36,168 bases of DNA from contig CADEDN010000035.1 in assembly GCA_902826095.1 (NCBI GenBank), positions 1-36,168 on the forward strand, written 5' to 3'. Below are positions 5,893-35,369 of the stretch, one piece after another (the first letter of the stretch is position 1; the number at the start of each line of letters is the position of its first letter). The position numbers and the translations under genes were made by a program. The notes under the pieces were generated by a model that was not told where the DNA came from, did not search any database, and saw only the letters and a program-made list of their open reading frames with translations. This DNA is from an uncultured Alphaproteobacteria bacterium (GTDB lineage: Bacteria; Pseudomonadota; Alphaproteobacteria; Caulobacterales; Parvularculaceae).

Positions 5893-5949
5893 CCTTTCGC
5901 CGCAAAGAGGGCTAGTGTCGTCTCTGGGGCCCTCGGGAGAGTGATTCTC

Positions 5950-17847: not shown

Positions 17848-19214
17848 CTTTTGCGCCCACTTGCGATCAACCGATCGATTTCACGGTGAAAATGGCGCAG
17901 CCGGTCTTCCTGTTCGCCCCATAGCGGGCCGCGAAAGCCGCGCGATCTGACTCCGCGCTGGACGGCGGCGACAAGTTCGACATCCTGATCGAGCACCTCG
18001 CCGAGATTGGGTCTTATTCCCGCTGGCACGTGTTCGATCTCCGGGCGGACGGCCCCTGTGACATCGATGTCCTTTGGCAGACCCATCCAGCCGGGTGTCG
18101 TATAGCCGGGGTCGTCGACAAAGCGGAACATCGTCATGTTGTCGTAATAGAAGCGCTCCGGGTCGGTCGGATGCGGCTGGAACCGCATGATGAAGACGCC
18201 TTCCGGATGCATGCCGATCTGCACATTCGGGAAATATCCAGTCGCCCAGCTGTCCGTAAGCTGACCATCGGTGAGACGGTCGTAGTAGTCGAGGCCGAAC
18301 TGCTTGCCGCGCGCACGCTTGCTCTTCTGGATCGCCGTGCGGACATCTTCGGCGGAGCCGTCGAAGGTTTCAGGATCGATACCCGCTTCCATCATCATGA
18401 ATTTCTGATACGGGTCGACCGTGGCGCGGTCGGCGATACGGTGCGACTTGACGCCGATCGGGACGATCATCCTCGAAAATCCGTTGGGATAAAGATCGAT
18501 CTGGCTGTAATCCTCCATCACGCCCTGCGTCTGCGGATGGATATGCGGCAGATGATAGGTCTCGTAGAAGGCGTCGATGCCGGTCTTCCAGTTCGCCATC
18601 CATTCGCTGCGCACATGGCGGACGACATTCATATTCTCGATTTCATAATTCTCGATATACCCGGGCGGCAGGCCGATCCACTCGCGTAGAGGCGGCGCCT
18701 TGCCATCCATATTGATGAAGATAAGGCCGCCGATCACGCCGCAGCGGACCTCTGTCAGTCCTGGACGATGCTTCAGGAGGGCCGGGTCAAAAGTTTTTTC
18801 CTCAGTAACGGTCTCAAGCTTGCCGTCGCAGCCGAATTTCCAGCCATGGAACGGGCAGGAGAAATTCGCAACGCTGCCCTGCTCAACGAGGCAGACGCGG
18901 TTTCCGCGATGCGGACACACATTATAGAAAGCCTTGATCGAGCCGTCCTGCTGACGGGCGATGATGAATTCCTCATGCCCATGCGAAAAGAGCGTGAAGT
19001 CGCCGGGCTCCTTGATGTCTGGCGTGACGCCGGCGAGAAGCCACACGCGCGGCCAGACATGTTTCCACTCAAGCTCCATGAACTCGCGGGAATAGTAACG
19101 CGAGGGGGAGGGCACATCGAGCCCGATGTCTTTCGGTCTCGATTGTTTTGCTTCAAGGGAGGTTTTGGGTGCGCCGAGGTCCATCGGCCACTCTGCGCGA
19201 AATCCTTCAGCCAT
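17844..19214 (-). CDS. Rieske non-haem iron oxygenase, alpha subunit (first copy)
   Basis: Ring-hydroxylating oxygenases of this type insert oxygen into aromatic or alicyclic substrates using electrons from a reductase and often a ferredoxin. The 456-residue protein has the Rieske [2Fe-2S] ligands C100-x-H102 and C120-x2-H123 (CPHRG, CPFHGW), and the mononuclear iron site in DAFYETYHLPHIH (H221, H226, bridging D214) with D411 near the C-terminus. GGGAGGACC ahead of the ATG is a good ribosome site. It is the third gene after tetR and gst on this strand but has its own operator (19287-19304) 73 bases upstream. No beta subunit gene adjoins, so an alpha-only enzyme is likely. The substrate is unknown. 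Confidence 0.92.
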   Translation of the reverse strand: MAEGFRAEWPMDLGAPKTSLEAKQSRPKDIGLDVPSPSRYYSREFMELEWKHVWPRVWLLAGVTPDIKEPGDFTLFSHGHEEFIIARQQDGSIKAFYNVCPHRGNRVCLVEQGSVANFSCPFHGWKFGCDGKLETVTEEKTFDPALLKHRPGLTEVRCGVIGGLIFINMDGKAPPLREWIGLPPGYIENYEIENMNVVRHVRSEWMANWKTGIDAFYETYHLPHIHPQTQGVMEDYSQIDLYPNGFSRMIVPIGVKSHRIADRATVDPYQKFMMMEAGIDPETFDGSAEDVRTAIQKSKRARGKQFGLDYYDRLTDGQLTDSWATGYFPNVQIGMHPEGVFIMRFQPHPTDPERFYYDNMTMFRFVDDPGYTTPGWMGLPKDIDVTGAVRPEIEHVPAGIRPNLGEVLDQDVELVAAVQRGVRSRGFRGPLWGEQEDRLRHFHREIDRLIASGRKS

Positions 19215-19286: not shown

Positions 19287-19304
19287 AAACAATCGTGATT
19301 GTTT
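19287..19304 (-). promoter_or_regulatory. TetR-type operator A, ahead of the first Rieske gene
   Basis: AAACAATC-GT-GATTGTTT is a perfect inverted repeat with 8-bp arms in the GST-Rieske gap. Similar 18-mers occur at 20980, 21870, 31809 and 31931. On the minus strand its right arm provides TTGTTT followed after 18 bases by TAGGCT, a possible -35/-10 pair, so a bound repressor would block the polymerase. Confidence 0.75.
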
Positions 19305-20222
19305 TTATGGCGCGGCGGGTTCGAGCCGGAACCCGATTCGCGGGAAGTGCACGTGAACGAGCCCGGCGCGAGGGTCGCGACGCGCAATAACAATCTCGCG
19401 GTCGCTCGCGAGGACGAGGTCGCCTGCGACAGGGTCTTTGCCGTGGTCTGCGGCGGCGACAATAACCGGATCGCCAGGCGTTGCGCCTGATTCGTCCTTC
19501 AAGCTAGCGCCGACTGGTCCGGGTGCGCTGGCGTGCGCAATGTCGATCGCGTCCGTGGCGGAAATCTCGGTGCGCGCGCCTTCGCCGAGCGCGTCCATGC
19601 GGTCACGCCAGGCGAGAAGAAATGGCATATCGGCTAAAAGCCGCGCCGAGGAGGGAAAATTCGCGCGGGCCATCCAGATGTTAAAATAGGCGCCAATATC
19701 GGCCCAAACCGGCGTCGGTCCTGTCAGATATGGGCGTCCGTCGCCGAGTTGGATCTCGATCAGGCGCGCATGCGCGCGGACCTGGCTCCTGAAATGCGGC
19801 GCGTCTGTTTCAAAGCGATCGAAATCAAGAAAGGAGAAATAATCGCGCCGGTCATTCATTAATGCATCAGGGATGTGCTCGCGATTCTCATATAGCGAGA
19901 GCCCTGCGCCCGGCGGAAAAAAGACTGCGTCGCTCCAGTGCTGCAAGCCAAGCATGACAAGCGGTTCGGCGCCGATGACCGGTGGAGATGGGTGCAACCT
20001 TTCCACCGTCTCAACAATGAGGCGCGTGTCGCAGAAGATATCTGCGCCGATCTGCAGCACCGGCGTTTTCCGATATCCTCCTGTCAGCGCGTAAAGATCC
20101 GGCTTTGGCGTGACGATCGGGATTTGCACGCTTTTCCAGGCGAGCGACTTTACGCCGAAAAGTTTCCGGACTTTTTCTGCGAACGGGGAAATGTCAAAAT
20201 GATGGAGAACTAGGCCGGTCAT
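19305..20222 (-). CDS. Glutathione S-transferase family protein with C-terminal extension
   Basis: The 305-residue protein has a thioredoxin-like N-terminal GST domain (LVLHHFDISPFAEKVRKLFGVK; KTPVLQIGADIFCDTRLIVE about 53-72) and a helical C-terminal GST domain to about residue 215. A further 90 residues form a likely beta-rich extension with GDPVIVAAADHGKDPVAG and VHVHFPRIGF, a tail I have seen in alphaproteobacterial relatives. It could bind glutathione to open an epoxide, remove a halogen or isomerise a ring-cleavage product. The start overlaps the tetR stop (ATGA), so the two are translated together, which suggests that the enzyme supports the catabolic pathway or detoxifies its intermediate. 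The reaction is not readable from sequence. Confidence 0.82.
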   Translation of the reverse strand: MTGLVLHHFDISPFAEKVRKLFGVKSLAWKSVQIPIVTPKPDLYALTGGYRKTPVLQIGADIFCDTRLIVETVERLHPSPPVIGAEPLVMLGLQHWSDAVFFPPGAGLSLYENREHIPDALMNDRRDYFSFLDFDRFETDAPHFRSQVRAHARLIEIQLGDGRPYLTGPTPVWADIGAYFNIWMARANFPSSARLLADMPFLLAWRDRMDALGEGARTEISATDAIDIAHASAPGPVGASLKDESGATPGDPVIVAAADHGKDPVAGDLVLASDREIVIARRDPRAGLVHVHFPRIGFRLEPAAP

Positions 20223-20959
20223 GTGCGGGATGCAGCGGCGCCTTTCGCAGGACCTTTCGGTTTTTCACGCGAATAGCGCTTGGAATTCTTCATTTCCATC
20301 GGCATCAGATCGCGGAGCCTCTCTTCAAGATATTTGAACAGCTGCGCTTCCGCTTTGGGATCTGGCGTCGCCGAAAGCCGGCTTACCGCCATGCCCTCCA
20401 GCGTCACCTGAACTAAATTGAGCGCAAGATCGAAACTTTCGCGATCGCTTTGCCATTCCGGAAACAAGTCTACCGCGAGATCATACCAGGCGCGATAGAA
20501 TGCCGCCTGAGCCGGCCTCAGGATGCGTTCAAGGTCCCTGTCCGTGCGCGCCGCTACGGCGAGTTCGTGAAATGCGACAAACAGGGGATGACTAACATGA
20601 CGCCAATAGGCTTCGAGCGCGTCATGTAGATGGGGTTGATCTTCAGGTAGCGTCGAGACGGCGCGCTTGAAGGCGCGCAGTCGCTTGGCGTGCAAATGTT
20701 CGATTGCCGCCTGAATCACAGTCAGCCGGTTTGAGAAATGATGCATCATTGCGCCGCGCGAGAGGCCGGCTTCAACAGCGATGCGCGGCGTTGTCGTTTG
20801 CGAGTAGCCGTATTTGATGAGACATTGCAGCGCCGCTTCGACAATCAGCTTGCGCGTTGACGCGCTCTTTTGCGCTTGTCGGCCGATTTCGGCCAATGGC
20901 CTTGCGGCTGGCGCCTTGTTTCCCCGTTGACGCGCCGATGTCGCCGCTCGTTCCGTCAT
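20219..20959 (-). CDS. TetR family transcriptional regulator
   Basis: The 246-residue protein carries a TetR DNA-binding domain: KLIVEAALQCLIKYGYSQTTTPRIAVEAG then LSRGAMMHHFSNRLTVIQAAI, with the helix-turn-helix at about 54-78. The Lys/Arg-rich N-terminal tail (1-35) and the C-terminal ligand-binding helices are variable, as usual. ATG 20959 is chosen: an in-frame GTG ten codons further upstream would place the start inside operator C (20980-20997). It is the only regulator in the cluster and is followed by a GST with overlapping codons. It is probably a repressor released by the substrate or a CoA-ester, and autoregulated. Confidence 0.9.
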   Translation of the reverse strand: MTERAATSARQRGNKAPAARPLAEIGRQAQKSASTRKLIVEAALQCLIKYGYSQTTTPRIAVEAGLSRGAMMHHFSNRLTVIQAAIEHLHAKRLRAFKRAVSTLPEDQPHLHDALEAYWRHVSHPLFVAFHELAVAARTDRDLERILRPAQAAFYRAWYDLAVDLFPEWQSDRESFDLALNLVQVTLEGMAVSRLSATPDPKAEAQLFKYLEERLRDLMPMEMKNSKRYSREKPKGPAKGAAASRT

Positions 20960-20979
20960 GCCTGAATTCCGATCCAAAA

Positions 20980-20997
20980 AAACATTCACGTCTGTCT
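20980..20997. promoter_or_regulatory. TetR-type operator C, tetR/SDR divergent region
   Basis: AAACATTCACGTCTGTCT is a more degenerate copy of the 18-mer. It shares the core TCACGTCTGT with the minus-strand reading of the copy at 31809-31826. It lies 21 bases ahead of tetR and 88 ahead of the divergent SDR gene, so it could serve both and give autoregulation. Confidence 0.55.
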
Positions 20998-21084
20998 GTA
21001 TTTTACGCTATTCGTCTGGAAATACACCTGCGAAAATGCTGCGCCGCAACATCCAAGGGCGCTTGTGTCGAAGGAGATGAATCT

Positions 21085-21849
21085 ATGGGTCGCGTTGCGG
21101 GAAAAGTCGCCGTCATCACTGGCGCCGCCTCGGGTCTGGGGCTGGAAGACGCGCGTGCGCTCGCCCGCGAGGGCGCCAAAGTCGTTCTTACCGATATTAA
21201 TGCGGAAAAGGGGCGCGAAGCGGCGCGATCGATCGGCGAAGGGGCGCTGTTCATTCAGCATGATGTTTCGAAGGAGGACGACTGGCGCCGCGTCATCGCT
21301 GAAGCCGAGCGCGCCTTTGGCGGGGTCGATATTCTCGTTAACAACGCCGGTGTCGTTGTGTTGTCGTCGCCGGAAGATTGTACGCTGGAGCAGTTCAAAT
21401 TCGCCAACGCTGTAATGTCCGAGGGGGTGTTTCTCGGATGTAAACACGCTCTGCCGGCGATGAAAACGAGCAAGAGCGCCTCGATTATCAACATGTCGTC
21501 GACGGCGTCGCATGTCGGCTATCCGATCTTCTTCGCCTATTCCGCAGCGAAAGGCGCCGTCCGTGCAATGACAAAATCAATCGCGATACACTGCCAGGCG
21601 GAGGGCTATCCGATCCGCTGCAATTCAGTCCACGCCGGCGCCATCGAAACCCCGATGGTGCAGTTCGCGCAGGGCCGCGCCGCGGAAAAGGCGCTCGATA
21701 TTCCTTCGGGCGTGCTGCCGCCGGGCGCGCTTGGCGCGCCGGCTGATGTCGCCAATCTGGTGCTCTTTCTCGCGTCAGACGAATCCCGGTTCATCACGGG
21801 GGCTGAGCTTGTTATTGATAATGGGCTGACGGCGCGACCGGCCCCCTGA
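21085..21849 (+). CDS. Short-chain dehydrogenase/reductase (SDR) 1
   Basis: The 254-residue classical SDR has the NAD(P)-binding TGAASGLG at 12-19, the acidic residue after the second strand (VVLTDIN) suggesting NAD preference, NNAG in LVNNAGVVV, and the catalytic Ser with Tyr-x3-Lys in the YSAAK motif. The C-terminal ITGAELVIDNG is standard. ATG 21085 is supported by AAGGAG nine bases upstream; longer forms starting in the tetR gene are not credible. It should oxidise a secondary alcohol or dihydrodiol made by the oxygenases. It diverges from tetR across operator C and is followed by operator B, so it is probably its own transcription unit. Confidence 0.9.
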   Translation: MGRVAGKVAVITGAASGLGLEDARALAREGAKVVLTDINAEKGREAARSIGEGALFIQHDVSKEDDWRRVIAEAERAFGGVDILVNNAGVVVLSSPEDCTLEQFKFANAVMSEGVFLGCKHALPAMKTSKSASIINMSSTASHVGYPIFFAYSAAKGAVRAMTKSIAIHCQAEGYPIRCNSVHAGAIETPMVQFAQGRAAEKALDIPSGVLPPGALGAPADVANLVLFLASDESRFITGAELVIDNGLTARPAP

Positions 21850-21869
21850 GGCGCTTGACGCCAAGAAAA

Positions 21870-21887
21870 AAACAATCATGATTGTCT
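21870..21887 (+). promoter_or_regulatory. TetR-type operator B, ahead of the main catabolic operon
   Basis: AAACAATC-AT-GATTGTCT is almost the same as operator A (16 of 18 positions), with a perfect 14-bp palindrome ACAATCATGATTGT inside. It lies 37 bases before the start of the seven-gene operon beginning at 21925. TTGTCT in the right arm could be a -35 element, but no convincing -10 follows at the right distance. Confidence 0.75.
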
Positions 21888-21924
21888 TTAATTTGGCCTG
21901 ATTGGCCCGCGAAAAAGGCGAAAA

Positions 21925-22689
21925 ATGGACCTCGGATTAATTGGCAAGAACGTCCTCATCACTGGCGCCACGCAAGGTATCGGCCGGCAGATCGCCAACC
22001 TGTTTGCTGAGGAGGGCGCCAATGTCGCGATCTGTTCGAGGTCGCCAGATGGCGTCAAAAAGGCGGTGAAGGAACTCGCGCTACTCGCGGATGGCAAGAT
22101 TGTCGGCGCACCCTGCAACATTAAGAACAAGGAAGAATACGAGGCCTGGGTCGCCGCTATGGCGGAAGAGCTTGGCGGCGTCGACATTTTCATCCCCAAC
22201 GTCTCGGCGGGAGGCGGCGCCGACAGCGAAAAGAACTGGTGGAAGAATTTCGAGATTGACGTCCTTGGGGCCGTCCGCGGCGTCGAGGCGGTTTTGCCTT
22301 TGATGGCAAAACGAGGCGGCGGCGCGGTAACCATGATCTCAACAACGGCGGCGGTTGAAACCTTCATGGCTCCGCAGGCCTACAACGCGATGAAAGCCGC
22401 GCTCATCACCTACGCCAAGCAGCTCAGCCAGGCGCATGGCGATAAGGGCGTGCGCGTCAATTCGGTGTCGCCAGGGCCGATCTATTTTGACGGCGGCGCG
22501 TGGGACATGATCAAAACCTCGAACGAGAAATTCTATGAACGGACCGAGAAGACCCATGCGCTCGGACGGCTTGGCGAGCCTGAGGAGGTTGCGCGCTGCG
22601 TCGTGTTCCTTTCCAGCCCGGCGGCAAGCTGGGTCACCGGCGTCAATCTCGTTGTCGATGGCGGCTACACCAAACGAGTGCAGTTCTAA
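21925..22689 (+). CDS. Short-chain dehydrogenase/reductase (SDR) 2
   Basis: The 254-residue SDR has TGATQGIG at 13-20, an Arg after the second strand (CSRSPD) pointing to NADP or dual use, and PNVSAGGG where classical members have NNAG. The catalytic region is MISTTAAVETFMAPQAYNAMKAAL (Tyr-x3-Lys). The C-terminal WVTGVNLVVDGGYTK is typical. The first gene of the operon, it follows operator B and precedes the second Rieske gene by 4 bases. It is a likely partner oxidising or reducing the product of that oxygenase; the altered NNAG motif may reflect a different loop. Substrate unknown. Confidence 0.9.
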   Translation: MDLGLIGKNVLITGATQGIGRQIANLFAEEGANVAICSRSPDGVKKAVKELALLADGKIVGAPCNIKNKEEYEAWVAAMAEELGGVDIFIPNVSAGGGADSEKNWWKNFEIDVLGAVRGVEAVLPLMAKRGGGAVTMISTTAAVETFMAPQAYNAMKAALITYAKQLSQAHGDKGVRVNSVSPGPIYFDGGAWDMIKTSNEKFYERTEKTHALGRLGEPEEVARCVVFLSSPAASWVTGVNLVVDGGYTKRVQF

Positions 22690-22693
22690 GCGT

Positions 22694-24037
22694 ATGAAGG
22701 TTCGGCGCGAACAGAAAATCAGCCGCGTCGCCAAGCCCAAGGGTGCGCGCGGGACGCCAGTCAAAGCTGAGCCGAAACCAAAGCTCGGAGCAGACGTCAT
22801 TCCCGCCGAGCGCTACACGTCCGCCGACTATGCGGCGCTTGAATGGTCGAGGATGTGGACCAAAGTCTGGCTTCTCGGCTGCCGAGAAGACGATATTCCC
22901 AATCCGGGCGATCACATCGTCACCGAGATCGGCAAGGAATCGATCCTGATCGTCCGACAGCAGAATGGCGGCGTCAAAGCGTTTCACAATGTCTGCCAAC
23001 ATCGCGGCAACAAAGTGGTGCACGCCGTCCACCGGCCGCAGGAAGCGGCGAAATCCTTTCGCTGCCGCTATCACAATTGGGAATATCGGCTCGACGGACG
23101 CTTTGCTGATATCCCCGATCTTGAAACCTTTCCGCAGGGTGCGCCGTCCTGCGGCGGTCTGATTTCGCTCCCCTGCGATCGTTGGGGATCGTTTGTCTGG
23201 TTCAGCCTTGACCGCCGCGCTTCGAGTCTTCGGGACTACCTCGGAATCATCCCGCAGCATCTCGACCCCTATCATTTCGAGCGCATGGTGTTGACCGAGT
23301 GGAAGTCGGTCGAATGGAATACGAACTGGAAAGCTTCGGTCGACGCCTTCAATGAGAGCTATCATGTGCAGGGGACGCATCCGCAGCTTCTCTATTATCT
23401 CGATGATCTCGACATCCAGATCGACTGTTACGAGCGCCATAGCCGTTACCTGATCGCCTTTGGCGTCCTCAGCCCGCGCGTCGTTTCGCCGTCCGAAATT
23501 CCGCCGCCGATCAAGGTCGCCATGCGCGACGCCGGTATGGATCCCGCTTCTTACGAAGGCTCGGTCTATGAGGCGCGCCGCGCGATCCAGAAGCACAAGC
23601 GCGACAACGCCGTCGCGCAGGGCAAAGACTATTCCGATCTCAATGACGATCAGCTGACAGATGATTACAATTACTTGATCTTCCCAAACATCACGCTGAA
23701 CATCCATGCGGACGACCTGATGCTTTTTCGTCACCGGCCGCATCCGACTGATCCGGGCAAGATGTATTTTGATTATTTCATGTTCCAGCTGCCGGGGAAC
23801 GAGTTCGACAAGGAAGACTACAAGCCCCCGATTCACAAAAGCTACAAGCATGGCGAAACATCACTCGGCCTCGTCATCAATCAAGACGCCTACAACCTGC
23901 CGCATGTGCAAGACGGCATGAAGAGCGAGGGATTTCAGGGCCTTTGGATTGGCGATCAGGAAATCCGCATAAGGCACTTCCACAAGACGATGGACGACTA
24001 TTGCGAGAGCGCGAAACCGAAAGGAAGGGCTGGATGA
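22694..24037 (+). CDS. Rieske non-haem iron oxygenase, alpha subunit (second copy)
   Basis: The 447-residue enzyme is a diverged paralogue of the first Rieske gene. Ligands are C101-x-H103 and C124-x2-H127 (CQHRGN, CRYHNW) for the cluster, and H224, H229 with bridging D217 in DAFNESYHVQGTHPQ plus D398 in VINQDAYN for the mononuclear iron. A basic N-terminal extension of about 30 residues (KVRREQKISRVAKPKG) is unusual. The ATG at 22694 is preferred; earlier in-frame starts lie in the SDR gene. Its stop overlaps the E1alpha start (ATGA), indicating strong coupling to the next step. There is no beta subunit, ferredoxin or reductase gene in the operon. Confidence 0.92.
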   Translation: MKVRREQKISRVAKPKGARGTPVKAEPKPKLGADVIPAERYTSADYAALEWSRMWTKVWLLGCREDDIPNPGDHIVTEIGKESILIVRQQNGGVKAFHNVCQHRGNKVVHAVHRPQEAAKSFRCRYHNWEYRLDGRFADIPDLETFPQGAPSCGGLISLPCDRWGSFVWFSLDRRASSLRDYLGIIPQHLDPYHFERMVLTEWKSVEWNTNWKASVDAFNESYHVQGTHPQLLYYLDDLDIQIDCYERHSRYLIAFGVLSPRVVSPSEIPPPIKVAMRDAGMDPASYEGSVYEARRAIQKHKRDNAVAQGKDYSDLNDDQLTDDYNYLIFPNITLNIHADDLMLFRHRPHPTDPGKMYFDYFMFQLPGNEFDKEDYKPPIHKSYKHGETSLGLVINQDAYNLPHVQDGMKSEGFQGLWIGDQEIRIRHFHKTMDDYCESAKPKGRAG

Positions 24038-25011
24038 CCTCTCAGCAAAGCCGCGATCAGCTTCTTGGCGCCTATCGCCAGATGAAGATGATCCGGGAGT
24101 TCGAAGAGCGACTCCACAAGGAGATCATGACCGGAGAAATCGCCGGCTTCACCCATCTCTATTCCGGGCAGGAGGCGGTGGCGGTCGGGGTTTGCGCTCA
24201 TCTTGAGGCGGATGACCTTATCGTCTCGACGCACCGCGGCCATGGGCATTGCATCGCAAAGGGCTGCGATGTCAAAGGCATGATGGCGGAGATTTACGGG
24301 CGCTCGACCGGCCTTGGCAAAGGCAAGGGCGGCTCGATGCATATCGCCGATTTTCAGAAAGGCATGCTTGGCGCGAACGGCATTGTCGGAGCCGGGGGTC
24401 CGCTGGCTGTGGGCGCGGCGCTGTCCGCCAAGCTCGACGGCAAGGGCTGCGTCGCTGTCAGCTTCGGCGGCGACGGATCCGTTAATCAGGGCGCCGTCTT
24501 CGAGGCGATGAACATGGCGGTCGTGCTGAAACTGCCGGCGATCTTTGTGATCGAGAATAATGGCTATTCCGAACATACGGGCGCCGATTACGCGGTCGGA
24601 TCGAAAGACATCGCAGGGCGTTCTGCGGCTTTCGGCATGAAGTCGATCAAGGCGGACGGCTCTGATTACTTCGCCGTCTATGATGCGATGGGTGAACTTC
24701 TCGATCATGCTCGCGCGGGCAAAGGTCCCTGCGTGGCGGAATTCGAGACGACCCGGTTCTTCGGGCATTTCGAAGGCGACCCGCAGAAATACCGGGCGAA
24801 AGACGAAGTGAAGCGTCATCGCGAAGAAATGGACAGCCTGAAGATTTTCCGCGCGCATGTTCTCAACGACCGGTTGCTTGATGAGACTGCGCTTGATGCG
24901 ATCGACGCGGATGTCCTGTCGCTGATCGAAGAGGCGGTGAGCGAGGCCAGGGCCGCGCCGCCGCCGCAGCTCAGCGAGATCACCACCGATGTTTATGTCA
25001 GCTATCCTTGA
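24034..25011 (+). CDS. Thiamine-diphosphate dehydrogenase E1 alpha subunit (AcoA-like)
   Basis: The 325-residue subunit binds thiamine diphosphate and Mg: the TPP motif runs from GDGSVNQG (146-153) to ENN (174-176), 26 residues apart as usual. STHRGHGHCIAKGCDV and the ADYAVGSKDIAGR loop are typical of acetoin and 2-oxoacid dehydrogenase E1 alpha chains. With the E1 beta and E2 genes that follow it forms a complex that decarboxylates a 2-oxoacid or cleaves an acyloin or diketone, passing an acyl group to lipoate and then CoA. Start and previous stop overlap. The position directly after a Rieske oxygenase gene suggests a ring-derived oxo compound as substrate; this is inference. Confidence 0.92.
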   Translation: MTSQQSRDQLLGAYRQMKMIREFEERLHKEIMTGEIAGFTHLYSGQEAVAVGVCAHLEADDLIVSTHRGHGHCIAKGCDVKGMMAEIYGRSTGLGKGKGGSMHIADFQKGMLGANGIVGAGGPLAVGAALSAKLDGKGCVAVSFGGDGSVNQGAVFEAMNMAVVLKLPAIFVIENNGYSEHTGADYAVGSKDIAGRSAAFGMKSIKADGSDYFAVYDAMGELLDHARAGKGPCVAEFETTRFFGHFEGDPQKYRAKDEVKRHREEMDSLKIFRAHVLNDRLLDETALDAIDADVLSLIEEAVSEARAAPPPQLSEITTDVYVSYP

Positions 25012-25022
25012 GGAGGGAACCG

Positions 25023-26036
25023 ATGGCGATTAAATCCTATCGTGACGCCCTCAATGAGGCGATGCATCGTGAGATGGAGCGCGATGCGCGCGTCTTTGTC
25101 TGCGGCGAGGACGTATCGGGCGGCGCCGGCGGCACTTCAGGCGAGCGCGAGGCCTCGGGCGGGATTTTTGGCGTGACTGCGGGCCTCCTGCCGCGCTTTG
25201 GCGAGGGGCGCGTAATCGACACGCCGATTTCGGAAAACGCGATCGTCGGCCTTGCGGTCGGCGCGTCGCTCGCCGGCAAGCGCGGCATTGCGGAAATCAT
25301 GTTTGCGGATTTCCTCGGGCTCGCGCTTGACCAGACGATGAACCAGGCGGCGAAATTCCGCTACATGTCAGGGGGCAAGGCGACGTGTCCGGTTGTCATA
25401 CGCGCGCCTTATGGCGCAGGCATGAACATGGCGGCGCAACACAGCCAGACAATGTATCAGATCATCACCTCGGTGCCTGGGCTGAAAGTCGCAATGCCGT
25501 CGAACCCGGCTGACGCCAAAGGGCTGCTTGCTACCGCCATCCGGGACGATGATCCGGTCGTCTTTTTCGAACACAAGGCGCTTTACGGCCGCAAAGGCGA
25601 GGTGCCGGACGGCGATTATCTGGTGCCATTCGGCAAGGCGGCGATACTCAATGCAGGCGATGACGCAACAATCATCTCCATGGGGCGGATGGTGGTGTTC
25701 GCGGAGAAAGCGCTGGAAGGGTTGAAAGCCTCCGGCGTCAATTGCGATCTCATCGACATCAGAACGTCGAGCCCGCTCGATGAAGACGCCATTCTCGACA
25801 GTGTAGAGAAGACTGGCCGTGTCGTCATTGTCGATGAATGCCCGCCGCGTTGCTCGGTCGCCGCCGATATCGGTGCGTTCATCGCCTCGAAGGGTTTTTC
25901 ATCGCTGCGGGCGCCGCTTGAACTTGTAACCGCGCCGCATGCGCCGACGCCCTTCGCTAAGGAGCTTGAGCGCGCCTATGTGCCAAGCCCCGCCCAGATT
26001 GACGCGGCCGTGCGTCGCGTCGTCAGTTACAGATAG
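25023..26036 (+). CDS. Thiamine-diphosphate dehydrogenase E1 beta subunit (AcoB-like)
   Basis: The 337-residue subunit completes the E1 heterotetramer. It has the pyrimidine-binding N-terminal part (CGEDVSGGAGG, DTPISENAIVGLAVGASLAG) and a transketolase C-terminal domain (IDIRTSSPLDEDAILDSVEKTGRVVIVDE). The DVSGGAGG and MNMAAQHSQ region matches the acetoin-dehydrogenase branch better than the pyruvate branch. ATG 25023 follows GGAGGGAACC, clearly the ribosome site; a TTG 15 bases earlier is not needed. It lies 11 bases after E1alpha and 8 before E2, in one operon. Confidence 0.93.
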   Translation: MAIKSYRDALNEAMHREMERDARVFVCGEDVSGGAGGTSGEREASGGIFGVTAGLLPRFGEGRVIDTPISENAIVGLAVGASLAGKRGIAEIMFADFLGLALDQTMNQAAKFRYMSGGKATCPVVIRAPYGAGMNMAAQHSQTMYQIITSVPGLKVAMPSNPADAKGLLATAIRDDDPVVFFEHKALYGRKGEVPDGDYLVPFGKAAILNAGDDATIISMGRMVVFAEKALEGLKASGVNCDLIDIRTSSPLDEDAILDSVEKTGRVVIVDECPPRCSVAADIGAFIASKGFSSLRAPLELVTAPHAPTPFAKELERAYVPSPAQIDAAVRRVVSYR

Positions 26037-26044
26037 AGAGCGTG

Positions 26045-27250
26045 ATGCCCAAGCAGATTCAGCCTTTCACCATGCCGAAATGGGGCATAGAAATGGAAGA
26101 GGGCGTCGTTCGTGAATGGCTTGCGAAAGAAGGCGACGCCCTGAAGATTGGCGATCTCTTCGTTGTCATCGAAACGGATAAGATCACGAATGATGTCGAA
26201 CTCGAATTCAACGGAGTGTTGCGCCGGCGCATCGGCGAGGAGGGTTCAGCCTACAAAGTCGGCGCGCTGATCGCCGTCTTCGCAGATCAAGCGGTAACTG
26301 ATCCGGAAATCGACGCGTTCATTGCAAAATTCAGACCGGCGGACGCCAGTTTTCTCGGCGATGCGGTATCCAAAGCGCCGTTGGCGCCCGCCGCGAGCCG
26401 GGAAACGGTCATTCCCGCCGGGTTGTCGCTCTCGCCGAAGGCTTCCGAACTCGCCGCATCACTCGGCGTGGATCTATCCGCTTTCGCCGGGCAGACAGGA
26501 CGCATCTCGCTGCAGGATGTCGAACAGGCGGCGAAAGAGCAGGGGCTACGCGCAACACCGGCAAGGACGGCGCCGCCCGCCGAAAATCCGTTCAAGGTCG
26601 TCAAGCTGTCGGCGATGCGTCGCACGATCGCAAAGCGCCTGACTGAATCGGTGCAGACGGTTCCGCATTTCAGTTTGCGGCGAAGAGTCTCAATGGAGTC
26701 GATTTTGGCGCTGCGCGCGCGCATCAGATCTGCGAACGGCGCCGCGCCGTCGGTGAATGATTTTCTGATCGCCGCCTCGGCGCGCGCGCTGAAGAATACG
26801 CCGGAGACAAATGTGCATTTCATGGGCGATGTCATCCATCAATTCGCGCATGCGGATATCGCGGTCGCCGTCGCGCTTGAAGGCGGGCTCGTGACGCCCA
26901 TCATCCGCTGTGCGGAGTCGAAATCAGTCGATGAAATCTCACGCGAGATGAACGACCTAGTCGAGCGGGCGCGGTCGGAAAGACTCACGCAGGTCGATTA
27001 TCGCGGCGGCACATTCAGCCTTTCCAATCTCGGTATGTTCGGGATTGAGAGTTTCGACGCCGTCATCAACCCCCCAATGGCGGCGATCCTTGCTGCAGGC
27101 GCGGTCGAACGCGCACCGCTGGAAAGCGGCGGTTTCGGGTCAGTCATGTCGGTGACGCTTTCCTGCGACCACCGCGCGATCGACGGCGCGCTTGGCGCGC
27201 GCTTTCTTGCTGCATTCAAGGACGCGATTGAAACGCCGCATCTATTGTGA
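26045..27250 (+). CDS. Dihydrolipoamide acyltransferase E2 (AcoC-like)
   Basis: The 401-residue E2 has a lipoyl domain with the attachment Lys46 in IETDKITND (preceded by PKWGIEMEEG), a peripheral subunit-binding domain at about 125-160 (LSPKASELAASLGVDLSAF), and the catalytic domain. The active site is H376-x3-D380-G (CDHRAIDG), complete. It transfers an acyl group from lipoate to CoA. ATG 26045 directly follows an in-frame GTG at 26042. There is no E3 lipoamide dehydrogenase in the window, so the E3 of another complex must reoxidise the lipoate. The acyl group chemistry is not predictable here. Confidence 0.92.
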   Translation: MPKQIQPFTMPKWGIEMEEGVVREWLAKEGDALKIGDLFVVIETDKITNDVELEFNGVLRRRIGEEGSAYKVGALIAVFADQAVTDPEIDAFIAKFRPADASFLGDAVSKAPLAPAASRETVIPAGLSLSPKASELAASLGVDLSAFAGQTGRISLQDVEQAAKEQGLRATPARTAPPAENPFKVVKLSAMRRTIAKRLTESVQTVPHFSLRRRVSMESILALRARIRSANGAAPSVNDFLIAASARALKNTPETNVHFMGDVIHQFAHADIAVAVALEGGLVTPIIRCAESKSVDEISREMNDLVERARSERLTQVDYRGGTFSLSNLGMFGIESFDAVINPPMAAILAAGAVERAPLESGGFGSVMSVTLSCDHRAIDGALGARFLAAFKDAIETPHLL

Positions 27251-27261
27251 AAGGAAACGCC

Positions 27262-27804
27262 ATGAGGCTGCATCCGATGATGAATCACAGGGTTTTGCAG
27301 CTTGCCTATGTCGTCAACGACATCCACGCGGCGGCGGATCGATGGATTAAGACGTTTGGCGTCGGCCCTTTCTACATTCTCGATCGACCGCAAGTCGGCA
27401 ATCCGCTCTACCGGGGCAAGCCGCAGAGAGTCGAGTTTTCGGCCGGCCTCGCGCAGGCCGGCGACGTTCATATCGAACTCATCCAGCAGCATTGTGATTC
27501 GCCCTCCTGCTATCGCGACACGATCCCGAAAGGGAAGGAGGGGTTTCACCACGTTGCTGTCATCGTTGACGATTATGAGAAAGATGTCGCTCGCTACAAC
27601 GAAATGGGCTTCTCTGTTTCCTCAAGCGGGGAATTCGGACCGCTGAAATTCTGTTATGTCGACACGTCGCCCGCAATGGGCTGCATGGTCGAGGTGCTCG
27701 AGAACCTACCCTTCATCCACAATTATTTCGCAAGCATCCGAAAAGCCGCGGAGGGGTGGGACGGGAGTCGGCCGATCCGCGACGCCAATGAATTAGCGAG
27801 CTGA
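27262..27804 (+). CDS. VOC (glyoxalase-fold) family protein 1
   Basis: The 180-residue protein has two vicinal-oxygen-chelate half-domains: VLQLAYVVNDIHAAADRWIKTFGVGPF at the start and GFHHVAVIVDDYEKDVARYNEMGF in the second half, with potential metal ligands His (FHHVAVIV) and Glu (GCMVEVLE). Such enzymes act as isomerases, lyases or ring-cleaving dioxygenases. A GTG at 27247 overlaps the E2 stop (GTGA), but the ATG at 27262 with AAAGGA ahead is better. It shares its C-terminal phrase AEGWDG with the next gene. Its role in the pathway is unknown; a hydrolase or isomerase acting on the ring-opened intermediate is possible. Confidence 0.84.
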   Translation: MRLHPMMNHRVLQLAYVVNDIHAAADRWIKTFGVGPFYILDRPQVGNPLYRGKPQRVEFSAGLAQAGDVHIELIQQHCDSPSCYRDTIPKGKEGFHHVAVIVDDYEKDVARYNEMGFSVSSSGEFGPLKFCYVDTSPAMGCMVEVLENLPFIHNYFASIRKAAEGWDGSRPIRDANELAS

Positions 27805-28356
27805 ATGTCGGCGGGGCTCGCCATTGATCTGTCGATCGGCGCTGAATTTGGCCGCATCGTCCAGCTCGCAGTGCACGCGCCTTCCATTCTTGATCTGGCG
27901 CGGCGCTTCACCGATGAGATGCGCGCCGGACCCTTTTATGTCATGGAGCACATTCCGCTGCAATGCGCTCTCTATCGCGGAAAGCCTGCTTCCTTTGATC
28001 ACAGCTCAGCCTATGGCCAACTCGGCGAGGTGATGATCGAGCTTATTCATCAGCATGGGGATGAGCCTTCGGCAGTGCGCGATATGTATGCGGCGGGCGA
28101 AGTGGGATTTCACCATGCGGCGATTTTCGTCGACGATCTCGATGTTGCTATTCGCCGCGCGCAAGAGGCCGCGATGACGATTGCGCTTGATGCGCTGACA
28201 ATGGATGGCGTCCGCTTTGTCATGGCTGACGCGCGCCATTCTTTTGGCTGCATGCTGGAATTTTACGAGCCATCGCCGGTGCTGCAAAAATTTTACGGCT
28301 TCATTCGCCGAAAGGCGGAGGGCTGGGACGGAAAAGAGCCGCTGCGCCGGCTTTAA
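27805..28356 (+). CDS. VOC (glyoxalase-fold) family protein 2
   Basis: The 183-residue product is a diverged relative of the preceding VOC protein: GRIVQLAVHAPSILDLARRF, GPFYVMEHIPLQCALYRGKPASF, GFHHAAIFVDDLDVAIRRAQE and a tail FYGFIRRKAEGWDGKEPLRRL. It starts one base after the upstream stop, so translation is coupled. It ends the operon; its stop shares the palindrome TTAA with the stop of the converging SDR3 gene. The pair may form a heterodimer or act on successive intermediates. The metal ligands are plausible (His in FHHAA, Glu in MLEFYE). Confidence 0.83.
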   Translation: MSAGLAIDLSIGAEFGRIVQLAVHAPSILDLARRFTDEMRAGPFYVMEHIPLQCALYRGKPASFDHSSAYGQLGEVMIELIHQHGDEPSAVRDMYAAGEVGFHHAAIFVDDLDVAIRRAQEAAMTIALDALTMDGVRFVMADARHSFGCMLEFYEPSPVLQKFYGFIRRKAEGWDGKEPLRRL

Positions 28357-29144
28357 GGGTTCGCCGCCGCTGCGATCGAAGCGTTGATTTCCGCCTGGGT
28401 CGGATTGCGCCGCAGGGTCAGCCCGCCGTTCACCTGCAGATTCTGGCCAGTCATGAAGCAATCGTCACGGGCGAGAAAGATCGCGGCCGTTGCGACATCG
28501 TCGGACGTGCCGATGCGGCCGAGCGGATATTCCTTGACGAAAGCGTCCTCCAGTCCGGGCGTCGCCGCCGCTTCAGCGGTCATGGGCGTTTTCGTGAAGC
28601 CTGGCGAAATCGAATTCGCCCGGACGCCATAACGGCCATATTCGTAAGCGACGCAGCGCACGACATGATCTGCGCCCGCTTTCGCGCCCATATAAGCGGC
28701 GTGATGATTGAGCATGACGGTCGCCGTCGCCGAGGAGATCTGGATGATCGAGCCGCCTCGCTCCTTCATCGCTTCCGCCGTCGCCTGCAGGAAAAAAAAC
28801 GGCCCTTTGAATTGTAGCGCCAGCATGCGGTCGAGGTCGTCTTCAGTCGTTTTCTCGAATCTTTTGACCAGGCCCCAGCCGGTCGCATTGACCGCAACCG
28901 ACAATCCGCCGAAGCGCTCGATCGCTTTCCGGACCATGGCGTCGACATCGGCGCGCTGGGTAATGTCGCAGAGCGCGAAATCGCCGCCAATCTTCGTCGC
29001 AAAGTTTGTCAGCTCTTCTTCGTGGCGGCCAGCGACGAGCACCTTCGCGCCCGCTCCCGCAAATCTCTTTGCGATCGTCTGGCCCATATTCCCGGCGCCA
29101 GCGGCGCCCAGCACGATGGCGATTTTTCCTTTCAGCTCATTCAT
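28353..29144 (-). CDS. Short-chain dehydrogenase/reductase (SDR) 3
   Basis: The 263-residue SDR has GAAGAGNMGQTIA in place of the usual TGxxxGIG, an Arg-His pair after the second strand (VAGRHEEE) suggesting NADP, NATGW for NNAG, and ISSATATVMLNHHAAYMGAK with Ser and Tyr-x3-Lys. The NMG turn resembles that of enoyl-ACP-reductase-like and 2,4-dienoyl-CoA-reductase-like members, so reduction of an enoyl or dienoyl ester is conceivable. It is the last gene of the leftward operon after the broken SnoaL gene; its stop overlaps that of VOC protein 2. Start ATG 29144 is followed by a normal family N-terminus (MNELKGKIAIV). Confidence 0.9.
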   Translation of the reverse strand: MNELKGKIAIVLGAAGAGNMGQTIAKRFAGAGAKVLVAGRHEEELTNFATKIGGDFALCDITQRADVDAMVRKAIERFGGLSVAVNATGWGLVKRFEKTTEDDLDRMLALQFKGPFFFLQATAEAMKERGGSIIQISSATATVMLNHHAAYMGAKAGADHVVRCVAYEYGRYGVRANSISPGFTKTPMTAEAAATPGLEDAFVKEYPLGRIGTSDDVATAAIFLARDDCFMTGQNLQVNGGLTLRRNPTQAEINASIAAAANP

Positions 29145-29162
29145 CGCGCATTTCTCCGGTTG

Positions 29163-29435
29163 TCAAAGGCGGTTCTGAAACGCCAGATCGCCATGACCGC
29201 GCTCGCCGCGCAGCGTCAACGTCTGAAGCGCGCCCTCGTCCCGGATGGCCGAAGAAATTTCGTAATGGCTCCATTCCACCATGAACTGCCGATTCGCGAT
29301 CTTCCACTCCTGGCCGCGCTTTTCGGGCCGTTCGACATCGGAGCGATCAAGCGCCTGGCAAACGTGAGTCTGCGCATCATAGATACGATTGCGATCCATC
29401 AGCTCTTGCAGTCCCTAATCGTCATAATCGGGCAT
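29163..29435 (-). pseudogene. SnoaL/NTF2-like gene remnant (stop codon and internal deletion)
   Basis: Reading from ATG 29435 gives MPDYDD, then a TAG, then GLQELMDRNRIYDAQTHVCQALDRSDVE. This is the N-terminal helix pattern of SnoaL-like proteins (compare LEDREEIRALAARYTFAVDN in the intact gene at 35370). The frame then jumps directly to RPEKRGQEWKIANRQFMVEW, which fits the C-terminal strands of the same fold, so about 70-90 central residues are missing. The stop and the deletion together indicate a decayed gene between the second ABM gene and SDR3. Whether the fragment after the TAG (from ATG 29399, 78 residues) is still translated is unknown. Confidence 0.62.
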
Positions 29436-29462
29436 GGCCCAGGCATTCCCTTCGAGGCGGGG

Positions 29463-29771
29463 TTATTTCCCGCGCCTTGGCTCGCCGACAATGTCGTAGA
29501 ATTGCAGGTCCATCTTCTCGGCGAGGCAGTCGAGGATCGGCGGCACGAGGCGGTCGTGAAAATCGATCGCCATATGGTGATTGAACGCCTCTTCGCTCGT
29601 GAAAGTCGCAATGCACAGGAAGGTGTTCTCGTCATTACGCGAGCGGATCAGCTCATATACGGGCGCTTCCGATTCATGCCGGTGAACGAGCGAGCGCATC
29701 TCCGTCTGCAGCCGCTCAAATTCGGCTCGCTTTTCCGGTTTGACGACAAGCCTAGCGACAAAAGCGGTCAT
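29463..29771 (-). CDS. ABM-fold (antibiotic biosynthesis monooxygenase-like) protein 2
   Basis: The 102-residue protein fits the ABM / dimeric alpha-beta barrel family: FVARLVVKPEKRAEFERLQTEM, then YELIRSRNDENTFLCIATFTSEEAFNHHM and a C-terminal helix. Family members are cofactor-free monooxygenases of quinols, or small stress proteins. ATG 29771 has AAGGA ten bases upstream; a start at 29801 would overlap the ligase gene more deeply. It is coupled to the preceding acyl-CoA ligase gene (16-base gap). With the first ABM protein it flanks the ligase, suggesting a shared role in handling an aromatic intermediate. Confidence 0.8.
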   Translation of the reverse strand: MTAFVARLVVKPEKRAEFERLQTEMRSLVHRHESEAPVYELIRSRNDENTFLCIATFTSEEAFNHHMAIDFHDRLVPPILDCLAEKMDLQFYDIVGEPRRGK

Positions 29772-29787
29772 GGAGAGTCGTTCCTTC

Positions 29788-31434
29788 CTATTTTCGGTCA
29801 AGCTCCTGCGCGATATGCGCCTTCAGCTTGAATTTCTGAATCTTGCTCGTGGACATTGGCCATTCGTCGACGAAACGGACATAGCGAGGGATCTTGAAGC
29901 GCGCGAGCTTGCCGGTGCAATGCTCAATTAGCTCGGACTCAGTCGCGGCGGCGCCGGCTTTCAGCTTGACAAAAGCGGCGGCGACTTCTTCATACCGCGC
30001 ATCGGGCGCGCCGACGACCTGCGCAAGCTCGACCGCGGGATGCGTGTTGAGGACGGCCTCGATTTCAACCGCGGCGACATTCTCTCCGCCGACCTTCAAC
30101 ATATCCTTGGTGCGGCCGTGAAACATGATTTGGCCATTCGCGTCGAAAGAGCCAAGATCGCCGGTGTGCAGCCAGCCCTCATTGTCGATCGAGGCGGCGG
30201 TCTTTTCCGCGTCCTTGTAATAGCCTTTCAGCATGCCGGGGCCGCGAATGCAGATATCGCCCTGTTCGTCGACGCCGCATTCTTCGCCGGTCTCGATATT
30301 GAGGATTTTCACTTCCCAGCCGCGCAGCGGCACGCCGAGCCGAGTGGTGCGCGTCACCTCATCATCGCTGAGCCGGCTGGTGCAGACCGTTCCGGCCGCT
30401 TCCGTCAGCCCGTAGGTGCCGACCTGGATCGTATGAGGCATTGCTTTCACGATCGCCTGCCGGATCGCGTCCGGCTGCACGCCGAGATTGGAATTCATCA
30501 GTCGGATGCGCGACAAGTCGGTCTTGCTGAAGTTCGGATGATTGATAAGATCCTGCATGATCGTCACAAACGATGGATAGGTCATCGTCGCGCATTCTCT
30601 TTCCAGCATCGACAGCGCTAGCCCGGCCTCGAAATGCGGGATCGTCAGATAAGCGCCATGTACGTCGAAGACGGCGACCATCGGCAGGATGCCGGCGATG
30701 TGGAAAATCGGGAGCGGCGACCAGAAGCGGTCCGCGTCGGTCATCTCATAGCGATAGCGCCCAAGCGCGCGGCTGTTAGAGACAATGGCGCTGTGCGGGA
30801 TGAGGCAGCCCTTTGGATTGGCCGTCGTGCCGGATGTGTAAAGAATGAGACTGATATCGTCTGGCCTGACGCCGACGATTCGTTCGTCGAGTTGCCCGTC
30901 GCTGACCCCGCTGGCCAACGCGTCGATTTGATTGCCGTGCAGATAGCCGGGCGCATTCCCGCCACAGAGCACGATGGCGCCAAGCTTGGGCGCGGAGCTG
31001 ATCCGGAGATTCCGGGGTTCGTTGTTTTGCTTGATGTCTGGAAAGGCCTTGTCCAGACGGGAGACAAAATCGACCGCGTCGGCGATCTTTGCGGTTGTCA
31101 CGAGCGTAACGATGTCTGCATTCTCAATGATATAAGCGAGTTCCGCCGGCGCATAGCGCGCGTTGATCGGCACTGTAGCCGCGCCGGCGAGCGCGGCGCC
31201 AAACATTGCCTCGACGAATTGCGGCTGTGTTGTCATCAGCAGGCCGATATGGTCCCTCGGCTTAACGCCGAGTGCGATAAACGCTTTCGCCCATCGCCTG
31301 GCATTGGAAAGCAGCTCGGCGTAACTTTGCCTATGGTCCGGAAAGACGAGCGCGTCGGCTTGCGGCCGGGCGCGCGCCGCGGCGGTCAGAAGCTCGCTAA
31401 GAGTCAGAATTTCATCTGGAGCAGCGCTGGACAT
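29788..31434 (-). CDS. AMP-dependent acyl-CoA synthetase / ligase
   Basis: The 548-residue adenylate-forming enzyme activates a carboxylic acid with ATP and CoA. The P-loop is LYTSGTTANPKG at 198-209, then YGLTEAAGTVC, GWLHTGDLGSFD, GRTKDMLKVGGENV, and the C-terminal catalytic Lys531 in STSKIQKF. The substrate cannot be read: homologues include crotonobetaine/carnitine-, fatty-acid- and aromatic-acid-CoA ligases. It is the second gene of the leftward operon, 10 bases after the first ABM gene. A CoA-ester product fits the CoA-dependent E2 and the later beta-oxidation-like SDR steps. The ATG is at 31434. Confidence 0.93.
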   Translation of the reverse strand: MSSAAPDEILTLSELLTAAARARPQADALVFPDHRQSYAELLSNARRWAKAFIALGVKPRDHIGLLMTTQPQFVEAMFGAALAGAATVPINARYAPAELAYIIENADIVTLVTTAKIADAVDFVSRLDKAFPDIKQNNEPRNLRISSAPKLGAIVLCGGNAPGYLHGNQIDALASGVSDGQLDERIVGVRPDDISLILYTSGTTANPKGCLIPHSAIVSNSRALGRYRYEMTDADRFWSPLPIFHIAGILPMVAVFDVHGAYLTIPHFEAGLALSMLERECATMTYPSFVTIMQDLINHPNFSKTDLSRIRLMNSNLGVQPDAIRQAIVKAMPHTIQVGTYGLTEAAGTVCTSRLSDDEVTRTTRLGVPLRGWEVKILNIETGEECGVDEQGDICIRGPGMLKGYYKDAEKTAASIDNEGWLHTGDLGSFDANGQIMFHGRTKDMLKVGGENVAAVEIEAVLNTHPAVELAQVVGAPDARYEEVAAAFVKLKAGAAATESELIEHCTGKLARFKIPRYVRFVDEWPMSTSKIQKFKLKAHIAQELDRK

Positions 31435-31444
31435 CTATGGCCAA

Positions 31445-31735
31445 TTATTTCAGCGGGTCGAGATACTCGCGAGTCCAGCCGCCATTAATGCATTCGATCA
31501 TGCCTGGAGCGATCTCTTTGAAATGGTCGCTCGCCTGATGCGCGGCGTCGGCGGCCTCATCGGTGAAGCTCTCTATGACGGCGAAGGTGTTCGGCTCGCG
31601 CAGCCGGTAAAACTTGTATATGAGCGCCGTTTTTTCGTGCGCGCCGACGGCTTTCTCCATCGCTTCGCAGGCGGCGACAAACTGCGCCTCTTTATGCGGA
31701 TGGACTTTCATTCGGGCGATAAAGGTATGGGCCAA
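31445..31735 (-). CDS. ABM-fold (antibiotic biosynthesis monooxygenase-like) protein 1
   Basis: The 96-residue protein starts at TTG 31735 with AGGAGG seven bases upstream, a strong site that decides the unusual start codon. The fold matches the ABM family: HTFIARMKVHPHKEAQFVAACEAM, YKFYRLREPNTFAVIESF and a terminal helix. It is the first gene of the leftward operon behind operator D, with 10 bases to the ligase gene. Candidate roles are monooxygenation of a quinol or hydroxylated ring, or scavenging a reactive product. It is not a close copy of protein 2. Confidence 0.8.
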   Translation of the reverse strand: MAHTFIARMKVHPHKEAQFVAACEAMEKAVGAHEKTALIYKFYRLREPNTFAVIESFTDEAADAAHQASDHFKEIAPGMIECINGGWTREYLDPLK

Positions 31736-31799
31736 AGCGTGTCCTCCTGCGCGCGGCGGCGGCGCTTGCGCCCCGTCCTTTTCCTAGATCGGCCGCGCG

Positions 31800-31835
31800 C
31801 ACAAAAACAAACAGACGTGACGGTTTGTTTTTGTG
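31800..31835 (-). promoter_or_regulatory. Operator D within a 13-bp perfect inverted repeat
   Basis: CACAAAAACAAAC and GTTTGTTTTTGTG are perfect reverse complements separated by AGACGTGACG. The inner 18-mer AAACAGACGTGACGGTTT (31809-31826) is a weaker copy of operators A and B. On the minus strand, TTGTTT and TAGGAA spaced by 18 bases resemble the possible promoter at operator A. The repeat lies 65 bases ahead of the TTG start of ABM protein 1. Confidence 0.6.
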
Positions 31836-31930
31836 CGACGCAACATGGCAGGCCGAGTGTGTGTCTCTTTCACAATAGCTCGGAGAATCCCGGATTCAAG
31901 CTGCTTTTTGGAGCCTTGCGCTTACAAAAA

Positions 31931-31948
31931 AAACAAACATAATTGTTT
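31931..31948 (+). promoter_or_regulatory. TetR-type operator E, ahead of the TonB receptor
   Basis: AAACAAACATAATTGTTT agrees with the A/B consensus AAACAATCATGATTGTTT at 16 of 18 positions and sits in a perfect ACAAACA-TAAT-TGTTTGT palindrome (31933-31950). It lies about 95 bases ahead of the receptor start. Confidence 0.65.
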
Positions 31949-35361: not shown

Positions 35362-35369
35362 TCCAGTTT

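What the first reader, a model, noticed from the sequence alone, without database searches (positions are those of the whole stretch)
19287..31948. One 18-bp operator family marks all five inferred promoters of the catabolic cluster
Copies: 19287-19304 AAACAATCGTGATTGTTT, 20980-20997 AAACATTCACGTCTGTCT, 21870-21887 AAACAATCATGATTGTCT, 31809-31826 AAACAGACGTGACGGTTT, 31931-31948 AAACAAACATAATTGTTT. Each lies between divergent genes or directly ahead of a transcription unit (first Rieske gene; tetR-gst and SDR1; the SDR2-to-VOC operon; the ABM-ligase operon; the TonB receptor). I saw no copy in the rest of the window. The single TetR gene is the natural reader, with site C ahead of its own gene giving autoregulation. 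This groups about 16 genes into one regulon and predicts a pathway-specific inducer.
Basis: partly seen in the sequence, partly recalled or inferred. Interest (0 to 1): 0.8.

Follow-up and report, generated by a model that had tools for sequence, protein, structure and literature searches.

The report
One TetR switch controlling catabolic cluster
Five near-identical DNA palindromes in this stretch are very probably docking sites for one TetR-type regulator that keeps a set of about 25 genes for using an unidentified compound switched off until it is needed; the same regulator and docking site occur together in distantly related bacteria, but the kind of switch is ordinary.

Summary
Observation confirmed: all five 18-bp copies are where stated and stand far above the rest of the window (20-30 bits, next 6). 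The genome holds two more strong copies, both on contig C13, which by synteny with three relatives continues the same cluster. Of 62 family genomes, only the four carrying this tetR have exact operator matches. A matrix from those four finds a site upstream of tetR in 57 of 77 held-out alpha- and gammaproteobacterial loci, against 0 of 77 for the reversed matrix and 1 of 14 paralogous TetRs. The operator overlaps inferred promoter elements, so repression relieved by a pathway compound is likeliest; binding, direction and inducer are untested. The operator is a 28-30 bp A-tract-flanked palindrome with a 2-bp spacer; its half-site matches CymR's operator but the spacing differs. A new regulator-operator pair of a known kind; substrate unknown.

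The parts
19287..19304 (.). operator A, ahead of the first Rieske oxygenase gene (starts at 19214, minus strand)
   Evidence: orthologous site in three relatives with conserved TGTGnTA downstream
20980..20997 (.). operator B, between tetR (ATG at 20959, minus) and SDR1 (ATG at 21085, plus): inferred autoregulation
21870..21887 (.). operator C, ahead of the SDR2-Rieske-E1-E2-VOC operon
   Evidence: TTGACG, identical in four genomes, 16 nt upstream of CATGAT inside the operator
31809..31826 (.). operator D, ahead of the ABM-ligase operon (minus); centre of a 30-bp inverted repeat with 10-bp outer arms
31931..31948 (.). operator E, ahead of the TonB-dependent receptor
   Evidence: D and E lie 120-122 bp apart in all four genomes compared
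20219..20959 (-). TetR-family regulator, 246 aa (P0001), inferred reader of the operators
   Evidence: Pfam TetR_N 1.2e-11; AlphaFold2 mean pLDDT 88.8, all-helical; TetR-type neighbours in PDB
19305..20222 (-). glutathione S-transferase-like protein; overlaps the end of tetR by 4 bp (tetR-gst unit)
   Evidence: Pfam GST_N_3 4.4e-14, ORF list
17844..19214 (-). Rieske oxygenase alpha subunit 1
   Evidence: Pfam
21085..21849 (+). SDR1 short-chain dehydrogenase
   Evidence: Pfam on the longer frame 20857-21849, start
21925..22689 (+). SDR2 short-chain dehydrogenase
   Evidence: Pfam
22685..24037 (+). Rieske oxygenase alpha subunit 2 (start codon not settled)
   Evidence: Pfam, PDB relatives
23944..27250 (+). 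2-oxoacid dehydrogenase E1 alpha, E1 beta and E2 genes
   Evidence: Pfam
27247..28356 (+). two VOC/glyoxalase-family genes
   Evidence: Pfam
28353..29144 (-). SDR3, end of the ABM-ligase unit
   Evidence: Pfam
29788..31735 (-). ABM-domain protein (31445-31735) and acyl-CoA ligase (29788-31434)
   Evidence: Pfam
32044..34470 (+). TonB-dependent receptor
   Evidence: Pfam
34576..35915 (+). SDR4 and SnoaL-like genes downstream of the receptor; the cluster continues on contig C13 (L001)
   Evidence: Pfam, synteny

Best explanation
The sites are operators of the TetR-family protein encoded at 20219-20959. A TetR dimer binds a roughly 28-30 bp palindrome (A-tract, AAACAnnC, 2-bp spacer, GnnTGTTT, T-tract) at its own promoter and at the other promoters of one catabolic cluster, overlapping promoter elements and so repressing them. 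A substrate- or pathway-derived ligand, perhaps an acyl-CoA or polycyclic acid, releases it and turns on uptake (TonB receptor), activation (CoA ligase, CoA-transferase), three Rieske oxygenases with a ferredoxin, dehydrogenases and thiolytic steps together. Shown: the sites, their positions, their conservation and their link to this tetR. Inferred: binding, repression, ligand.
For: Seven strong sites in the genome, all in one cluster that is split over two contigs. 30 sites of score >=12 in the cluster regions of four genomes (7, 7, 8, 8), at mostly orthologous positions and in the best-conserved blocks of otherwise diverged intergenic DNA. Of 62 family genomes only the 4 with a tetR ortholog have exact matches. 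A matrix trained on 25 sites of those four scores >=10 in the 400 bp upstream of tetR in 57 of 77 held-out loci with 35-71% identical TetRs, against 0 of 77 for the reversed matrix, 32 of 1253 random windows of the same loci and 1 of 14 paralogous TetRs. SRGAMMHHF, the recognition-helix region, is invariant in 45 aligned TetRs. Spacing is nearly fixed: 47 matches at 2 bp, 12 at 6, 1 at 8, 1 at 10, none at the other spacings from 0 to 12. At site C a TTGACG identical in four genomes lies 16 nt ahead of CATGAT inside the operator, as expected for a blocking repressor.
Against: No binding or expression data. Eight of 77 held-out loci have no site even at score 6 upstream of tetR (L062, L077, L085, L099, L100, L102, L105, L123); six of them have a site of score >=11 elsewhere in the locus (L077 only 12.3), L099 and L123 none. 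The held-out loci were chosen by peptides that include the recognition helix (GAMMHHF), are capped at 80 of 101 and are partly redundant within genera. The closest paralog, L006, also has a weak upstream site (13.3). Operator B, the autoregulatory one, is among the weakest (20.4). No ferredoxin reductase or E3 was seen in the cluster.
Confidence: 0.9

Rival explanations
1. The palindromes are read by a different regulator encoded elsewhere, and the TetR gene is merely one of its targets.
For: No binding data exist; the first look gave 24 loose candidates for this TetR in the genome, so other TetR-like proteins are probably present.
Against: Exact sites and tetR ortholog are absent together in 58 of 62 family genomes, and a site lies next to tetR in distant alpha- and gammaproteobacteria whose neighbouring genes differ. 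No other DNA-binding regulator domain was seen among the cluster proteins scanned, though some small ORFs had no Pfam match.
Confidence: 0.06
2. The TetR reads the sites but activates transcription rather than, or as well as, repressing it (overlaps in part with the best explanation, which gives repression about 0.9).
For: At some promoters (site A, the C13 acyl-CoA dehydrogenase site) the operator lies at or upstream of the inferred -35 rather than over the -10.
Against: At site C the operator covers the inferred spacer and -10. As general knowledge, most TetR-family proteins repress.
Confidence: 0.1
3. The repeated palindromes are chance or composition artefacts, for example A/T tracts common to intergenic DNA.
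For: The loose pattern alone has many chance matches (mean 11.4 in shuffles), and 19 of the 58 family genomes without the tetR ortholog have one or a few one-mismatch matches.
Against: Exact matches are absent from those 58 genomes, the matrix gap is 20 against 6 bits, and sites recur at orthologous positions in four genomes.
Confidence: 0.01

Closest known systems
CymR / CuO (p-cymene and p-cumate catabolism)
   Same: A repressor of catabolic operons whose two operator sequences printed in PMC1654148 contain the half-sites AAACAGAC and AAACAAAC, both seen here (passages read). That CymR is TetR-type and from Pseudomonas putida is recalled.
   Different: By my reading of the printed sequences the CuO half-sites are 6 bp apart; here mostly 2 bp. 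The CymR protein was not compared, and the gene content of cym/cmt as recalled differs.
TetR repressors of fatty-acid or steroid catabolism (FadR, KstR type)
   Same: Local TetR with a multi-operon regulon, autoregulation and, by analogy only, an acyl-CoA-like inducer. Foldseek neighbours include Bacillus FadR, mycobacterial EthR2 and FasR.
   Different: Identity in the 50 Foldseek rows shown is 13-24%; no NCBIfam cut-off is reached by the 12 families listed. The KstR operator as recalled is different.
PheR of Sphingobium sp. SHPJ-2
   Same: One repressor links aromatic catabolism with TonB-dependent uptake functions (PMC13273656, abstract and passages).
   Different: PheR is an IclR-family protein with a different recognition sequence.

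Membership tests
TetR family of transcriptional regulators | N-terminal TetR_N helix-turn-helix domain | tested here: met
   PF00440 1.2e-11, 44.7 bits against cut-off 24
TetR family of transcriptional regulators | all-helical fold with a C-terminal ligand/dimer domain | tested here: met
   AlphaFold2 monomer model, mean pLDDT 88.8, helices only; the Foldseek rows shown are transcriptional regulators, mostly titled or recalled as TetR-type, best E 1.1e-5. Dimerisation not modelled
TetR family of transcriptional regulators | palindromic site at its own promoter (common, not universal) | tested here: met
   site B begins about 20 bp from the tetR start codon; upstream site of score >=10 in 57 of 77 held-out loci
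TetR family of transcriptional regulators | ligand-relieved DNA binding | not testable with these tools
   needs purified protein and candidate ligands
CymR/CuO system | operator half-sites 6 bp apart | tested here: not met
   47 matches at 2 bp against 12 at 6 bp; the two 6-bp cases in the window come from nested AAAC repeats
CymR/CuO system | regulator homologous to CymR | not tested
   a plasmid search with one CuO sequence, meant to find a cymR gene, gave two weak hits

The most novel reading that the evidence does not exclude
This is an undescribed, old and widely spread TetR regulon (Parvularculaceae, Hyphomonadaceae, Novosphingobium/Croceicoccus, SAR92/Porticoccaceae, Halieaceae) that controls an unrecognised oxygenase-rich pathway for a common marine or plant polycyclic lipid, with an operator that stays recognisable at about 35% regulator identity.
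Probability: 0.4. Interest if true: 0.55.

Novelty: new member of a known kind. Interest (0 to 1): 0.4.

Why it matters
A local TetR regulon is a familiar arrangement, but this regulator-operator pair defines, from sequence alone, which genes belong to one uncharacterised pathway in many alpha- and gammaproteobacteria. Here it ties two contigs into one cluster, adds a ferredoxin and several CoA enzymes to it, and gives a direct handle (a reporter driven by operator C) for finding the substrate.

Tried and rejected
Considered and rejected: chance palindromes; another regulator in the cluster (Pfam scans show none; a histidine kinase at 11648-12991, lies outside the cluster); membership in the CymR system by spacing. 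PheR was checked as a possible equivalent and is IclR-type.

Led nowhere: literature searches for a described equivalent. Searches returned no paper. Searches returned papers (one search listed 8 of 17); I saw no such TetR, but apart from passages of PMC1654148 and PMC13273656 I saw only search listings. A plasmid search with one CuO sequence gave two weak hits. PDB relatives of two of the three Rieske oxygenases and NCBIfam scans did not identify the substrate. C35 and C13 share no end overlap, so their adjacency rests on synteny only.

Caveats: the matrix was trained on 25 sites that include the window's own and the two on C13. Only loci outside the four training genomes count as held out (77 of the 80 kept; the search found 101 relatives). 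The 30-site count comes from stretches of 40 kb (three relatives), the window and C13:1-36000, not whole genomes. In one search I gave SDR1 a start one base off and masked its stops with X, so the SDR1 column of that table is meaningless and was not used. L018 dropped out of the paralog control (14 of 15 used) because tblastn did not locate its TetR. Operon membership is inferred from gene order.
Full report
Observation. The five 18-bp copies are present exactly as listed. A matrix gives them 20.4-29.8 bits; the next position in the 36-kb window scores 6.0. In the whole genome (3.79 Mb, 58 contigs) a consensus at up to two mismatches finds nine places: these five, two on contig C13 (5423-5440 and 7764-7781) and two weak others; the reversed control pattern gives 2+2.

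The cluster is larger than the window. C13 therefore very probably continues contig C35, although the ends share no sequence. The C13 part holds a CMD-domain gene, SDR, thiolase, HMG-CoA-synthase-like protein with an OB domain, third Rieske oxygenase, CoA-transferase III, acyl-CoA dehydrogenase and, directly after the latter, a Rieske-type ferredoxin at C13:9022-9354. No ferredoxin reductase or E3 gene was seen in the cluster; the rest of the genome was not searched for them. Counting both contigs, about 25 genes lie behind seven operators (my count, operons inferred from gene order).

Who reads the sites. Of 62 genomes of the family, 17 have a TetR match at E <= 1e-15, but besides the window's own only G020, G040 and G047 have a clear ortholog (82, 79 and 78% identity; the others are at most 34%). 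The same four genomes are the only ones with exact matches to the operator pattern. At up to one mismatch they have 5-7 forward-strand matches each; the other 58 have at most 2, none exact, and 19 of these 58 have at least one match on either strand. A Fisher test on 4/4 against 0/58 gives 1.8e-6, but the genomes are related and the sites travel with the cluster, so this overstates independence. With the matrix (score >=12) the cluster regions of the four genomes hold 7, 7, 8 and 8 sites.

Held-out test. A scan of named genomes gave 80 loci of TetR relatives (of 101 found; candidates picked by the peptides GAMMHHF or EIGRQAQK). Leaving out the three that are training genomes, 77 remain, from Eilatimonas and Hyphomonadaceae through Novosphingobium, Croceicoccus and Sphingobium to gammaproteobacteria such as SAR92, Porticoccaceae and Halieaceae. 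In the 400 bp upstream of tetR a score of at least 10 is reached in 57 of 77 and at least 6 in 69 of 77. The reversed matrix reaches 10 in 0 of 77 (6 in 2 of 77); random windows of the same loci about 1.5 kb or more away reach 10 in 32 of 1253, probably in part further sites of the regulon; paralogous TetR genes in 1 of 14, the closest paralog. Of the eight loci below 6, six have a site of at least 11 elsewhere in the locus and two (L099, L123) have none. 37 of 77 held-out loci have two or more sites of score >=14. Neighbouring genes vary among these loci, so the site follows tetR, not one enzyme gene. Redundancy within genera (for example three Croceicoccus loci with almost the same sites) lowers the effective number.

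Anatomy of the operator. Across 30 sites the conserved block extends by A-tracts on both sides, giving about 28-30 bp, roughly AAAAAM-AAACAATCATGATTGTTT-KTTTTT. The half-sites AAACAnnC are mostly 2 bp apart: over 85 sequences searched, 47 matches at 2 bp, 12 at 6 bp, 1 at 8, 1 at 10 and none at the other spacings from 0 to 12; the 6- and 10-bp cases in the window come from nested AAAC repeats. In aligned orthologous intergenic regions the operators lie in the best-conserved blocks. At operator C a TTGACG identical in four genomes lies 16 nt ahead of CATGAT inside the operator, which I read as -35 and -10 elements; at operator A the right half offers a -35-like TTGTTT with TGTGnTA downstream. 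Operators D and E are 120-122 bp apart in all four genomes. These promoter readings are inference.

Mechanism. Most likely the TetR dimer represses its own promoter and the others by covering promoter elements, and a pathway compound releases it; uptake, activation and oxidation are then induced together. SRGAMMHHF, in the recognition-helix region, is invariant in 45 aligned TetRs of the subfamily, in keeping with a conserved operator, though part of it was a selection criterion. The predicted structure (mean pLDDT 88.8) has only general TetR relatives in the PDB (best Foldseek E 1.1e-5, EthR2, 21% identity), so the ligand cannot be read from it. The gene content (three Rieske oxygenases, CoA ligase, CoA-transferase, thiolase, OB-domain protein, 2-oxoacid dehydrogenase, TonB receptor) and a related plasmid cluster in Croceicoccus marinus (with P450, MaoC and enoyl-CoA hydratase genes nearby) suggest a polycyclic lipid or terpenoid substrate; this is a guess.

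Known comparison. The closest operator I could find is CuO of CymR: the two CuO sequences in PMC1654148 contain the half-sites AAACAGAC and AAACAAAC (passages), but by my reading 6 bp apart. By spacing this is not a CymR operator; whether the proteins are related was not tested. I found no description of this TetR-operator pair in searches of the open library, which lacks most subscription journals and of which I mostly saw listings.

Verdict. Observation confirmed, and interpretation supported as far as sequence can take it. It is a new regulator-operator pair of a well-known kind, with a well-conserved operator and a useful definition of an unidentified pathway.

Noticed in passing
L001 (contig C13) 5435-6523: An interrupted second GST-like gene lies between the two C13 operators: tblastn gives 32% identity to residues 37-301 of the window's GST at 5714-6502, but the ORF list splits it into 5435-5791 and 6128-6523 in one frame.
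   Followed up: partly
window 29172-29438, minus strand: A SnoaL-like gene that is intact in two relatives (G040, G047) between ligase and SDR3 is only a remnant here; about its middle half (residues 43-146 of 203) gives no match.
   Followed up: partly
window 15533-17847: A GmrSD_N-domain gene and an HsdM N-terminal-domain gene sit right beside the catabolic cluster; they may mark a defence or mobile-element boundary.
   Followed up: no
L049 about 15290 (G047) and L046 6676 (G040): Two relatives have an eighth operator at the start of a PQQ-cytochrome c gene; no matching strong site was found beside the homologous gene on C13.
   Followed up: partly
L131: In Croceicoccus marinus a related cluster lies on a 762-kb plasmid with an IS5-family transposase gene among its genes, so the regulon may travel.
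   Followed up: no
L079-L130: Many gammaproteobacterial loci show a shifted operator form (AAGCAAGCnnGATTGTTT and similar), a natural set for studying regulator-operator co-evolution.
   Followed up: no
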